From a virus, in the IMG/VR virus record IMGVR_UViG_3300022928_002150, positions 31,809 to 95,808 of that record: a stretch of DNA of 64,000 bases. One strand, written 5' to 3'. Positions 59,749-63,410 of this stretch are shown piece after piece. The notes beneath the pieces were generated by a model. The model saw nothing but the letters and a program-made list of their open reading frames with translations. It had not been told where the DNA came from and did not search any database. Position numbers and translations under genes: made by a program. Position 1 is the first letter of the stretch. Each line of letters starts with the position of its first letter.

Positions 59749-59938
59749 CACCGTCGTAAGCTCCTTCCATATACGTTCCTGGCACACTGAAATATGCTCT
59801 CACTACATGAAGCGAGCGTAGTAATGCGTCATCTTGCCAATAGTTTGGAGCTACTTCATCCATCGCCATCTCAATAGCAGCATCAAGTTCTTCTAGCACA
59901 ATCTTGTCCAGCCCTTCACTTGTAATATACTCTCTCAT
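59738..59938 (-). CDS. 66-residue helical protein downstream of tmRNA
   Basis: Starting at ATG 59938 behind AAAAGGCAAAAAA, the protein is acidic and helical (GLDKIVLEELDAAIEMAMDEV) with NYWQDDALLRSLHVVRAYF. It lies just after the terminator of the tmRNA transcript, so its expression would depend on read-through or an unseen promoter. No family recognised. Confidence 0.6.
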   Translation of the reverse strand: MREYITSEGLDKIVLEELDAAIEMAMDEVAPNYWQDDALLRSLHVVRAYFSVPGTYMEGAYDGDRR

Positions 59939-59957
59939 TTTTTTGCCTTTTGCTATT

Positions 59958-59996
59958 AAAAAAATTCGTCCCACACTTTGATGACAAGGCAGTGGG
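59958..59996 (-). terminator. Terminator of the tmRNA transcript
   Basis: On the minus strand CCCAC TG CCTTG TCAT CAAAG T GTGGG forms an interrupted 10-bp stem, then ACGAA and seven T. It lies directly after the tag-coding piece and gives the tmRNA precursor a defined end. Confidence 0.75.
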
Positions 59997-60282
59997 CTCC
60001 TCGCAAGATTAGGCCGCTAAGGCGAGCTCTTGTTCGTAAACGTCGTTTGCGTTTATTTTAGGTTTTCGTCCATTTACGGGAGGTTGCTGCCCGATTCTCC
60101 ACTTGCTTTTCGATTGCTTGTCGATACTGAGTTCAGCCCCGTCAAAAACACATAGGCTGCGAAACTGTTGAGTTTATCGACTTACTTTGTATTCCTATGT
60201 GCTTTTGGTGGAGCTGACGGGACTTGCACCCGTGTCCAAACTTTCTATTACAAGTTTCTACGAATATTTTAGTCTGCGATGC
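59997..60282 (-). ncRNA. ssrA: Circularly permuted two-piece tmRNA
   Basis: Read on the minus strand the order is acceptor piece (about 60282-60206), intervening segment (60205-60141), coding piece (60140 to about 59997). The acceptor piece ends GGACACGGGTGCAAGTCCCG then TCAGCTCCACCA: a T-arm and encoded CCA. The coding piece starts GGGGCTGA at 60140; GGGGCTG pairs with CAGCTCC in seven pairs, including the G3-U70 wobble needed for alanine charging, the same stem as E. coli tmRNA. A D-loop-like AUCGAC follows. P2 pairs 60106-60094 with 60265-60250, and TGCGA (60005-60001) pairs with TCGCA (60279-60275). The tag frame 60050-60009 reads ANDVYEQELALAA-stop, resuming at GCA after AAAUAAAC. The intervening segment is a hairpin with CACATAGG/CCTATGTG. 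It needs host SmpB and processing. Confidence 0.93.
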
Positions 60283-60451
60283 ACCAGTGTCGAACTGTCG
60301 AAGGCACGAAACCGCAGATATTTTTTACCCAGTCTAAAGATGCAGGGTCTATAGAATAGTCTCGTCCGCCGTAGCGTACTACAAATTTTTCTGGAACTTC
60401 ACAGGGAAATCCGTACTTTTCACCTTCGTCAAAGGTTAGAAAAACTCTCAT
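60269..60451 (-). CDS. 60-residue protein encoded just ahead of, and overlapping, the tmRNA
   Basis: MRVFLTFDEGEKYGFPCEVP, VVRYGGRDYSIDPASLDWVKN and CGFVPSTVRHWCIAD look like a small folded protein. The start is set at 60451 because the longer frame to 60568 contains the promoter at 60482-60510. Its TAA (60269-60271) lies in the GACUAA segment at the beginning of the tmRNA acceptor piece, so the mRNA and the tmRNA share one transcript and about a dozen bases. Cutting out the tmRNA would remove the end of the message. Confidence 0.6.
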   Translation of the reverse strand: MRVFLTFDEGEKYGFPCEVPEKFVVRYGGRDYSIDPASLDWVKNICGFVPSTVRHWCIAD

Positions 60452-61107: not shown

Positions 61108-61491
61108 CTAGGTGATTAAAAATTCGTCTGAAGGAGACCTGTAAGGGTCTTGAGGGGTATCAGTCTGTTGAGCACCCGCTGTAGCTTTAGTTAGGGCGTC
61201 TTCTAGTGCTTTTAATGAGGCTTTTGGAGCTTTATCAAGCCCTGTAAGGGACTCTGGCTCGCATAAGAGCATATCTGCAATTGAATTTACAATTTCTACT
61301 TTCGTGATCGGCACATCACCAGTCTTAGATCTATAGACTTCTCTTCGGTACACGCCTTCGCGTGAGAGTTTTCCGATTACTGATTTCGTACTTTTTCTAT
61401 ACTTTTCTGCAAGCGCAGACACAGTTTCCTTGCTTGGATTTCGCACATACTCTTGTATAAGAGCCTGAGCCTCCTCCTGGCTATAGTTCAT
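61108..61491 (-). CDS. HTH protein of the phage Myb/SANT-like family
   Basis: The 127-residue protein has an N-terminal module YSQEEAQALIQEYVRNPSKETVSALAEKYRKSTKSVIGKLSREGVYRRE (in outline). It shares the xxSVxxKLSREGVY recognition-helix end with the paralog at 63029, and the C-terminal ITKVEIVNSIADML...ASLKALEDAL segment with it and with 40908. The linker carries a KTGDVP turn. A hairpin of the CCCG-CTTCT type follows the stop. Probably DNA-binding and regulatory. Confidence 0.8.
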   Translation of the reverse strand: MNYSQEEAQALIQEYVRNPSKETVSALAEKYRKSTKSVIGKLSREGVYRREVYRSKTGDVPITKVEIVNSIADMLLCEPESLTGLDKAPKASLKALEDALTKATAGAQQTDTPQDPYRSPSDEFLIT

Positions 61492-61810: not shown

Positions 61811-61990
61811 TTAACTCTCCAAAATTTGTATCACAATTTGTCCTTTTTCAACAAATATATCTACATCTGTGTTGTCAGACAAATTGAAGGTACTACAAAT
61901 CTCTGCGGGGATGTTAAATAATATATTCTCATTATCCCCTGGGATATTCTCAAACACCTCCTCAAAGGCATATTGATACTTCGTCTTCAT
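61811..61990 (-). CDS. AbrB/MazE-like small DNA-binding protein (tentative)
   Basis: The 59-residue protein has ILFNIPAEICSTFNLSDNTDV then DIFVEKGQIVIQILES: the 'i.iPaei...l.l..g..v.i.v..g.ivI' pattern of swapped-hairpin AbrB/MazE domains. The longest frame starts at a TTG (62002). ATG 61990 follows GGAAAAATTT and a promoter 35 bases upstream. It could be a repressor or an antitoxin-like factor. No toxin gene was recognised beside it. Confidence 0.6.
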   Translation of the reverse strand: MKTKYQYAFEEVFENIPGDNENILFNIPAEICSTFNLSDNTDVDIFVEKGQIVIQILES

Positions 61991-62024
61991 AAATTTTTCC
62001 AAAATTTTTTCAGGTGAAAAACAA

Positions 62025-62053
62025 ATTATATGATACTTTTGTTAAAAAGTCAA
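62025..62053 (-). promoter_or_regulatory. Sigma70-type promoter for AbrB-like/HTH unit
   Basis: Minus-strand TTGACT, 17 bp, TATAAT, with AAAAAAGTTC upstream. Directly follows the terminator of the structured RNA. Confidence 0.85.
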
Positions 62054-62077
62054 GAACTTTTTTCGTTGATGTGATAT

Positions 62078-62116
62078 AAAAAAAGACCCTCAAAGGAGAA
62101 AACTCCAAAGAGGGCC
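62078..62116 (-). terminator. Rho-independent terminator of the structured RNA
   Basis: On the minus strand GGCCCTC TTT GGAG TTTT CTCC TTT GAGGG TC then seven T (A-run at 62078-62084 on the plus strand). The stem pairs CCCTC with GAGGG and GGAG with CTCC around a TTTT loop. Confidence 0.88.
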
Positions 62117-62492
62117 ATAAACACAGCTATATGCTGTTTGTTTTAAGACTCGTAGCAGTCAATAGCAATTTTCGAGTCTGTTCCTGCTGGCTTTTTATAT
62201 ACCATTTAGGATTGGTATGTCCCCATCCTTCGTACATACCTGCTACTCCACACAATAGGTAGGGCTATATTAGAGTAACCCAATCGGTCTTTTGTTTGAT
62301 CCAGATACCGACGATGTGAAACTGGAGGGCAACTCTCAGTGTTGTCCCGCGACTGACGTACACAGTATTTTTCGTCTGCTGTACATGGCATTGACGTCCC
62401 GTTATAAAGCCCATAAGGGGATTTTTTGTCGTTGTTATAGTCTCCGACCTGACCCGTTAACAAACATTTCGTGTTGTTAACTCTTATCTCAT
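62117..62492 (-). ncRNA. Unidentified structured RNA, about 376 nt
   Basis: A consensus promoter and a strong terminator enclose about 376 nt on the minus strand without a good start codon or ribosome-binding site. Structures seen: hairpin GTACA-CAG/CTG-TGTAC (near 62385-62358); perfect 7-bp stem GGTATGT/ACATACC (62241-62235 with 62221-62215), whose loop AGGAT can pair with ATCCT just after it (62212-62208), giving an H-type pseudoknot; stem AGACTCG/CGAGTCT (62180-62174, 62153-62147); ACAGC/GCTGT near 62135. None of the RNase P, 6S or tmRNA signatures was found. An 85-codon frame crosses it but starts at TTG without support. Confidence 0.7.
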
Positions 62493-62498
62493 GTAACT

Positions 62499-62528
62499 AT
62501 TATACAAACATTTTGACCAAAATGTCAA
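62499..62528 (-). promoter_or_regulatory. Perfect-hexamer promoter for the structured RNA
   Basis: Minus-strand TTGACA, 18 bp, TATAAT. The spacer holds TTTTGGTCAAAA, a palindrome related to the TTGACCA repeats of the 60.6-60.9 kb region, so a regulator binding that motif could block it. Confidence 0.88.
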
Positions 62529-62542
62529 GAGAAATTTTAACC

Positions 62543-62752
62543 TCAGGTCAATAATTTCTTTTTTCGAAGGTTAAGCTCTTTTCGAGCTTTTACTCTGAGT
62601 TTTTTCTCGAGTCTTCGGAGATCAGAGTCTGGCTTATTACAAAGCTCCTCAAGCTCTGAGGTCTTTACTCCAGCAATAGAAAATACTTTTATAGTCTTCG
62701 TATTTGTTTTTCTGTCGAAAAAAATTTCGTTTGGTTTCCATTTTACAGCCAT
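62543..62752 (-). CDS. 69-residue basic protein, unknown
   Basis: AVKWKPNEIFFDRKTNTKTIKVFS begins the protein (in outline). The C-terminal third is a highly basic helix (RRLEKKLRVKARKELNLRKKKLL). AAGGAGATACTA supports the ATG. The basic helix suggests nucleic-acid binding. No family recognised. Confidence 0.68.
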   Translation of the reverse strand: MAVKWKPNEIFFDRKTNTKTIKVFSIAGVKTSELEELCNKPDSDLRRLEKKLRVKARKELNLRKKKLLT

Positions 62753-63028: not shown

Positions 63029-63331
63029 TTACGCGTTGTTGTTAAAGGTTAGCACCAATGCTTCTAGGTCGTTCTTAGAAGCTTTTGATAAGCTAGGCAA
63101 AGATACCCCTGTTACTTCTTCAATATGTCGTACTAAAGTCTCTTTGGTTACACCGTCGCTCTTGCGAACAGGAACCTGGGGTATATATACGCCTTCTCGA
63201 GAGAGCTTAGCAATAATGCTTCGTGGAGTTTTTTCGAATTGAACTGCGAGTGCCTCTACAGTTTCACGAGTTGGGTTTTGTACATATACGCTAGTTATCT
63301 CCAAAGTCATTTCTTCTGTGTAATTACTCAT
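63029..63331 (-). CDS. HTH protein of the phage Myb/SANT-like family
   Basis: The 100-residue protein has an HTH module ending TPRSIIAKLSREGVYIPQV, nearly the same as the module at 61108 (TKSVIGKLSREGVYRREV), and a C-terminal VTKETLVRHIEEVTG...ASKNDLEALVLTF helix pair as in the 40908 and 61108 paralogs. It is the shortest two-part member and has its own consensus promoter. Confidence 0.8.
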   Translation of the reverse strand: MSNYTEEMTLEITSVYVQNPTRETVEALAVQFEKTPRSIIAKLSREGVYIPQVPVRKSDGVTKETLVRHIEEVTGVSLPSLSKASKNDLEALVLTFNNNA

Positions 63332-63381: not shown

Positions 63382-63410
63382 ATTATAGTAGTATTTAGGT
63401 TATTTGTCAA
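63382..63410 (-). promoter_or_regulatory. Sigma70-type promoter for HTH gene at 63,029
   Basis: Minus-strand TTGACA, 17 bp, TATAAT, both perfect, with an A7 tract upstream. It overlaps the end of the metallopeptidase-like gene. Confidence 0.87.

What the first reader, a model, noticed from the sequence alone, without database searches (positions are those of the whole stretch)
62117..62492. A large structured RNA of unknown class with perfect promoter and terminator
About 376 nt between TTGACA-18-TATAAT and a rho-independent terminator, with several hairpins and an H-type pseudoknot (GGTATGT/ACATACC plus AGGAT/ATCCT). No protein start is supported. It is near the tmRNA and among HTH regulators. 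Large structured RNAs in phages (GOLLD and ROOL are examples) are mostly of unknown function, and this one does not show motifs I know.
Basis: partly seen in the sequence, partly recalled or inferred. Interest (0 to 1): 0.82.

Follow-up and report, generated by a model that had tools for sequence, protein, structure and literature searches.

The report
Modular structured RNA of marine phages
A marine phage carries a roughly 420-letter gene that makes a folded RNA instead of a protein; relatives keep different folded RNAs of the same building-block kind in the same place, often near their ribosome-rescue RNA, and none of these blocks was found in the public RNA catalogue.

Summary
On the minus strand a TTGACA-18-TATAAT promoter (62528-62499) and a terminator (62116-62078) bracket an RNA of about 416 nt with no supported protein and no Rfam family. 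A diverged homologue (267 of 440 alignment columns identical) lies in the same gene context in another viral contig; the two-sequence consensus fold beats 199 of 200 column shuffles even without the terminator. Related uncultured phages keep a promoter-RNA-terminator unit at this site, between two paralogous HTH-like genes: 48 distinct units in 61 of 140 overlapping loci. The units are mosaic. The window RNA shares a hairpin motif, [stem]-AAUU-GS-UANNAAUU-S'C-UA-[stem], whose S-S' pair covaries, and probably a second with a purine-rich, Shine-Dalgarno-like loop. A further domain, absent from the window, has 10 of 15 pairs with compensatory changes. A model of the first motif built without the window and its homologue has its best window hit inside this RNA (E 0.014 for 64 kb). 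Function is unproven; I favour early ribosome engagement, with RNA-only assembly as main rival.

The parts
62499..62528 (-). Promoter TTGACA-18-TATAAT of the RNA
   Evidence: conserved in position in L003
62078..62493 (-). Structured noncoding RNA, about 416 nt (start inferred from the -10 box, end from the T-run)
   Evidence: no Rfam match
62456..62481 (-). 5' hairpin GUUAACAA...UUGUUAAC
   Evidence: only about 4 pairs remain in L003 (read by eye)
62428..62454 (-). Conserved block GGUCA-GUCG-GAGACUAUAACAA-CGAC; two alternative pairings (GGUC/GACU or GUCG/CGAC)
   Evidence: consensus fold prefers GGUC/GACU; two compensatory changes for GUCG/CGAC are by hand alignment only
62397..62421 (-). Hairpin UCCCCUUAU-GGGCUUU-AUAACGGGA with invariant loop GGGCUUU
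   Evidence: hand alignment with L003 UCUUGUUUAU-GGGCUUU-AUAAACAGGA shows compensatory change; not chosen by the automatic consensus fold
62242..62279 (-). Hairpin GUUACUC...GAGUAGC with conserved loop UAUAGCCCUACC; AGCCC may pair with the GGGCU loop or locally with GGGUU
   Evidence: invariant between the two species, so the choice is open
62214..62240 (-). Hairpin GGUAUGU-ACGAAGGAUGGGG-ACAUACC with purine-rich, SD-like loop
   Evidence: same kind of hairpin in 24 of 48 slot RNAs against 7.05 in shuffles; L003 GUAUGA/UCAUAC
62208..62212 (-). AUCCU, proposed pseudoknot partner of AGGAU (not supported)
62146..62179 (-). AAUU hairpin: AGACUCG-AAAAUU-GC-UAUUGACU-GC-UA-CGAGUCU, the motif shared with other phages
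62120..62142 (-). Hairpin AACAAACAGC...GCUGUGUU
   Evidence: C-G to U-A change in L003
62078..62116 (-). Intrinsic terminator
   Evidence: conserved in L003
62025..62053 (-). Promoter of the next gene (TTGACT-17-TATAAT)
   Evidence: terminator-then-promoter order recurs in relatives
61811..62002 (-). 63-aa AbrB/MazE-like gene downstream
   Evidence: Pfam PF04014 E 0.01 (below cut-off), PHROG 4681 E 0.0023
61108..61491 (-). HTH1 small gene (anchor of the locus)
63029..63331 (-). HTH2 paralogue (other anchor)
59918..60298 (-). Permuted tmRNA, tag ANDVYEQELALAA

Best explanation
Shown by computation: the locus encodes a stand-alone, sigma70-type promoted, terminated, folded noncoding RNA of about 416 nt. 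It is one variant of a mosaic RNA unit that a clade of uncultured marine phages keeps between the HTH2 and HTH1 genes. It shares with other such RNAs the AAUU hairpin and, more weakly, the purine-loop hairpin. Inferred: it acts in trans, made early from a strong host-type promoter. The purine-rich loop (AAGGA here; GGAGG, AAGGAGG or GAGGUG in relatives) would be shown to the anti-Shine-Dalgarno end of host 16S rRNA, while the other domains fold into a compact body. The RNA would thus bind or titrate ribosomes alongside the phage's own tmRNA and tRNA genes. Domain swapping would retune it to different hosts.
For: Promoter and terminator conserved with the fold in L003. Consensus fold of window and L003: -54.95 against mean -28.2 (z -5.15, 0 of 200) and without terminator -34.5 against -18.7 (z -3.53, 1 of 200); pairs changed on both sides 9 against 4.2 without terminator (10 of 200). 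AAUU hairpin: core pairs formed in 30 of 30 cells over 15 rows, S-S' pair CG 7, GC 7, UA 1, score 0.600 against 0.142 (0 of 500). Model R2, made without window and L003, has its best hit of the whole window in this RNA (21.3 bits, E 0.014; next 13.2 bits, E 1.4) and finds L003 at E 6.5e-5 in 569 kb. Locus and mosaic. Purine-loop hairpin: 24 of 48 against 7.05. Loops match the SD string better than its permutations (6 of 5000 as good; 16 of 3000 when GG pairs are kept). GOLLD, a phage RNA of the same general kind, is reported to bind ribosomes in pull-downs (passage seen in PMC12286853).
Against: No expression or binding data. Single-sequence folding of the body is weakly significant (z -1.65). 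Only one clear full-length homologue; similarity of the whole window RNA to other slot RNAs is at noise level by alignment. The SD-like test rests on 20 related loops that I chose by a G-rich motif, and the window's own match is only 5 nt and L003's 4. The window loop departs from the AAUU consensus at two places (UAUUGACU for UANNAAUU). The host, and so its 16S sequence, is unknown.
Confidence: 0.4

Rival explanations
1. RNA-only assembly: the RNA oligomerises through kissing loops into a cage or scaffold, as GOLLD and ROOL do, and its contents or surface matter rather than ribosome binding.
For: Phage location near tmRNA and tRNA genes; a tRNA-like gene inside one slot RNA (L125:8337-8411), as reported for GOLLD linkers (PMC12286853 passages); loop GGGCU is complementary to the AGCCC of another loop.
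Confidence: 0.25
2. Antisense or sponge regulator: exposed loops base-pair with host or phage mRNAs or sRNAs, and fast module turnover tracks changing targets.
For: Mosaic, fast-changing content at a fixed locus; some phage and satellite ncRNAs are complementary to gene leaders (passage in PMC7567579).
Against: Invariant loops and covarying folded domains speak for shape rather than a long antisense stretch; no target search was done because the host is unknown.
Confidence: 0.15
3. AAUU hairpin as a general stem cap: the shared motif only stabilises RNA ends or leaders, and the slot RNAs have no common function.
For: The motif also sits in terminator stems (L240, L283) and just after -10 boxes or before start codons (L256, L269, L242).
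Against: It lies inside long noncoding RNAs in 17 slot contexts, in several together with other folded domains.
Confidence: 0.12
4. Cis leader or riboswitch of the AbrB/MazE-like operon.
For: It lies directly upstream of that gene.
Against: It ends in its own terminator and the gene has its own promoter (62053-62025); same order in relatives.
Confidence: 0.04
5. mRNA of a small protein (85-codon TTG frame, or a 36-codon ATG frame at the purine hairpin after a GGAG).
For: A short ATG frame exists at the same place in L003 and is 28 codons there.
Against: Changes in the 85-codon frame fall evenly on codon positions (32, 32, 33 of 84); in the short frame 7 of 9 changed codons in the parts compared are non-synonymous; no family match for the 85-codon frame.
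Confidence: 0.04

Closest known systems
GOLLD RNA
   Same: Large ornate noncoding RNA of phages and prophages, often near tRNA genes, function unknown; can hold a tRNA; variable and conserved regions (PMC12286853 passages)
   Different: No match in Rfam scans; about half the length; different motifs
ROOL RNA
   Same: Phage-borne, structured, near tRNAs, function unknown
   Different: No Rfam match
ICP1 transcript of about 800 nt in an orf-less space
   Same: Abundant long noncoding phage transcript (PMC7567579 passages)
   Different: Not compared in sequence here; another phage type
Permuted tmRNA (RF04321)
   Same: Neighbouring structured RNA in the same region of these phages
   Different: The finding itself does not match it

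Membership tests
GOLLD / ROOL (Rfam families) | Match to the family covariance model | tested here: not met
   Gathering scan of the window and E up to 10 scan of 62000-62600 list neither
GOLLD / ROOL (Rfam families) | Encoded by a phage near tRNA or tmRNA genes | tested here: met
   Virus record of 95,808 bases; tmRNA at 59918-60298
GOLLD / ROOL (Rfam families) | Homo-oligomeric RNA cage | not testable with these tools
   Needs cryo-EM or mass photometry
AAUU hairpin motif (defined here) | Sequence and S-S' pair as in other phages | tested here: met
   Best window hit of a model made without window and L003, E 0.014; pair count on 15 rows
GCC/GGC three-way-junction domain (defined here, model R1) | Match to R1 | tested here: not met
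   No hit in the window at E up to 10
Stand-alone sRNA gene | Own promoter and terminator | tested here: met
   conserved in L003
Stand-alone sRNA gene | Discrete transcript | not testable with these tools
   No transcriptome held
Riboswitch or leader | Transcript continues into the regulated gene | tested here: inconclusive
   Own terminator and a separate downstream promoter argue against; no RNA data
Protein-coding gene | Codon-biased conservation or family match | tested here: not met

The most novel reading that the evidence does not exclude
Marine phages keep a dedicated locus for mosaic noncoding RNAs built from interchangeable, independently folding RNA domains (AAUU hairpin, purine-loop hairpin, GCC/GGC three-way junction and others). 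This would be an RNA counterpart of the exchangeable host-takeover protein genes of phages, acting on host ribosomes or defences alongside a phage-encoded tmRNA and tRNAs. The AAUU hairpin would be a phage-wide RNA module reused in leaders, terminators and large RNAs.
Probability: 0.3. Interest if true: 0.85.

Novelty: new variant of a known kind. Interest (0 to 1): 0.68.

Why it matters
Large structured phage RNAs are few and unexplained. This locus gives a syntenic family with many natural variants, covariation-supported domains and an anchor (two small HTH-like genes) by which more can be found. That makes the question of what such RNAs do testable by comparing variants. The AAUU hairpin and the GCC/GGC junction look like RNA motifs missing from Rfam 15: nothing matched them in the scans, and no description turned up in paper searches.

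Tried and rejected
Rfam at gathering and at E up to 10: only chance-level sRNA matches, mostly to the terminator region. DNA search of phage records: no match; HTH1 protein: none in 50,697 phage records; DNA polymerase at best 44 percent, in Vibrio and Aeromonas phages. Pattern for the conserved AGCCC loop: only the two phages already known. Scans with HTH1 as single and pair query and with the 69-aa neighbour gave only those two, or one of them. L079 shared 12 letters with the RNA but inside a coding gene: rejected. Smith-Waterman of the window and L003 RNAs against other slot RNAs: weak scores (z 2.6-4.9) that I do not count as homology. The MAFFT alignment of the purine hairpins was not structure-aware, so I made no pair count on it. 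The genome scan with HTH1 gave one MAG contig, not followed. GGGCU-AGCCC kissing stays open because both sides are invariant. A9 and model R2 were built from rows that all have a complementary S-S' pair, so the pair count is not evidence; the fair counts are 17 of 18 distinct contexts, of which 15 were put into A6 (two near-duplicates and the one non-slot, non-pairing match left out), and 43 of 49 stretches.

Full report
Observation. The minus strand carries TTGACA (62528-62523), an 18-nt spacer and TATAAT (62504-62499), about 416 nt without a supported gene, and a terminator (62116-62078). The record is a 95,808-base virus contig and the window is its right two thirds. Single-sequence folding gives z -2.86 with the terminator and -1.65 without it, so folding energy alone would not prove a structured RNA. 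Rfam gives the permuted tmRNA at 60009-60265 and nothing at the finding.

Homologue. A neighbour-gene scan found two contigs. L002 is the same phage. L003 (IMGVR 3300006803_000046) is a diverged relative with the same order: 69-aa gene, RNA, AbrB-like gene, 98-aa gene, HTH1. Its RNA aligns with 267 of 440 columns identical, terminator included; the promoter is conserved too. Against 200 column shuffles the two-sequence consensus fold has z -5.15 (0 as good) and, without the terminator, z -3.53 (1 as good); pairs changed on both sides number 10 against 4.3 (2 of 200) and 9 against 4.2 (10 of 200). By hand alignment, hairpins at 62397-62421 and 62214-62240 show further compensatory changes that the automatic alignment missed (by eye). 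The AGGAT/ATCCT pseudoknot loses one pair in L003.

Coding tested. The 85-codon frame has no family match, no relative in 286 loci beyond the same phage, and even codon-position changes, 32, 32 and 33 of 84. The 36-codon ATG frame at the purine hairpin has a 28-codon counterpart in L003, but 7 of 9 changed codons in the parts compared are non-synonymous.

The locus in relatives. A scan with the polyphosphate kinase 2 gene that lies upstream in relatives found 313 encoding places, 80 kept; a scan with 26 aligned HTH1 proteins found 468, 80 kept. The order PPK2, metallopeptidase-like gene, HTH2, gap, 98-aa gene, HTH1 recurs, with members missing in places, and 46 loci had an HTH2-HTH1 gap that I could cut out. 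In 140 loci with an HTH1-type match (overlapping loci of one contig counted apart, many truncated), 61 met my criterion of a promoter 200-900 nt before a terminator within 1300 nt of HTH1, giving 48 distinct units. A few of these were cut too long and include a gene (for example L075, L114). Median folding z of the 48 is -1.77 with 25 shuffles each. Permuted tmRNA or tRNAs lie in the same interval in many but not all: of 30 loci scanned, 13 have a tmRNA or tRNA.

Shared domain 1, the AAUU hairpin. A loose pattern that does not impose pairing found 18 distinct contexts in the loci then held; 17 are on the transcript strand of the slot and have complementary S-S', and one (L139, other strand) is elsewhere and does not pair. 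On 15 rows the S-S' pair is C-G 7, G-C 7, U-A 1, all paired; covariation 0.600 against 0.142 in shuffles (0 of 500) and at most 0.095 in slid versions. A model built from 24 other sequences, window and L003 left out, puts its best hit of the window at 62181-62143 (21.3 bits, E 0.014; next 13.2 bits, E 1.4) and finds L003 at E 6.5e-5. A scan of all viral contigs for a tight form (G or C allowed at S and S') gave 49 stretches, 43 with complementary S-S'. Of 8 that lie in frames of at least 190 codons 3 pair; of the other 41, 40 pair. Outside this clade the hairpin caps terminator stems (L240, L283) or sits in leaders (L242, L256, L269).

Shared domain 2, the purine-loop hairpin. By a fixed rule 24 of 48 slot RNAs have one, against 7.05 in dinucleotide shuffles; the window has GGUAUGU-ACGAAGGAUGGGG-ACAUACC, while L003 fails the rule, by one letter before the motif as I read it. 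Twenty such loops match the Shine-Dalgarno string better than its permutations (6 of 5000; 16 of 3000 with GG pairs kept). The loops are related and hand-picked, so this is a lead only.

Domain absent from the window. The GCC/GGC three-way junction was aligned in 30 distinct sequences (of 31 found; one near-duplicate left out). 97.8 percent of 449 cells pair, 10 of 15 pairs have changes on both sides, covariation is 0.528 against 0.174 (0 of 500) and at most 0.105 when slid; RNAalifold gives the same 15 pairs unasked. Model R1 finds it in 25 of 60 loci searched, training rows included, and not in the window. It shows that slot RNAs are structured as a class, of which the window holds another variant.

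Mechanism. Shown: gene-like unit, conserved fold, shared hairpins, mosaic locus. Inferred: early trans-acting RNA that engages ribosomes through the purine loop. Rivals are listed with their probabilities. What is known of the kind comes from passages of PMC12286853, PMC9004378 and PMC7567579; other papers were seen only in listings.

Noticed in passing
59918-60298 (-): Permuted (two-piece) tmRNA with tag ANDVYEQELALAA; permuted tmRNAs recur near the slot in relatives with tags such as ANDDVYSLAA and GNDDIYDIAA.
   Followed up: partly
L240, L242, L256, L261, L269, L283 and others: The AAUU hairpin occurs in unrelated phage contigs as a terminator cap, a leader hairpin just after the -10 box, or within a long noncoding stretch; no Rfam match.
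   Followed up: partly
L125:8337-8411: A tRNA-like gene with a predicted four-base anticodon (gtta) lies inside the slot RNA; the otherwise similar RNA of L128 lacks it.
   Followed up: no
L125:7325-7409, L128:7334-7418, L146:7291-7375, L148:7287-7371: Weaker R1 hits overlap or follow the predicted end of the permuted tmRNA, as if the junction domain were attached to it.
   Followed up: no
L115, L166, L173, L176, L183, L189, L205: Other slot RNAs share a further block like UAUAAAGYGUAUGG between paired strands, probably another module.
   Followed up: no
L002:842-1459: PPK2-type polyphosphate kinase gene (Pfam E 5.7e-42) is a conserved neighbour in this clade.
   Followed up: partly
63382-63410 (-): A second 12-of-12 promoter lies before the HTH2 gene; several near-perfect sigma70 sites in this small-gene region.
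   Followed up: no
L238: The only HTH1 relative in the genome collection is in a contig of an Aureispira MAG, a possible but weak host hint.
   Followed up: no
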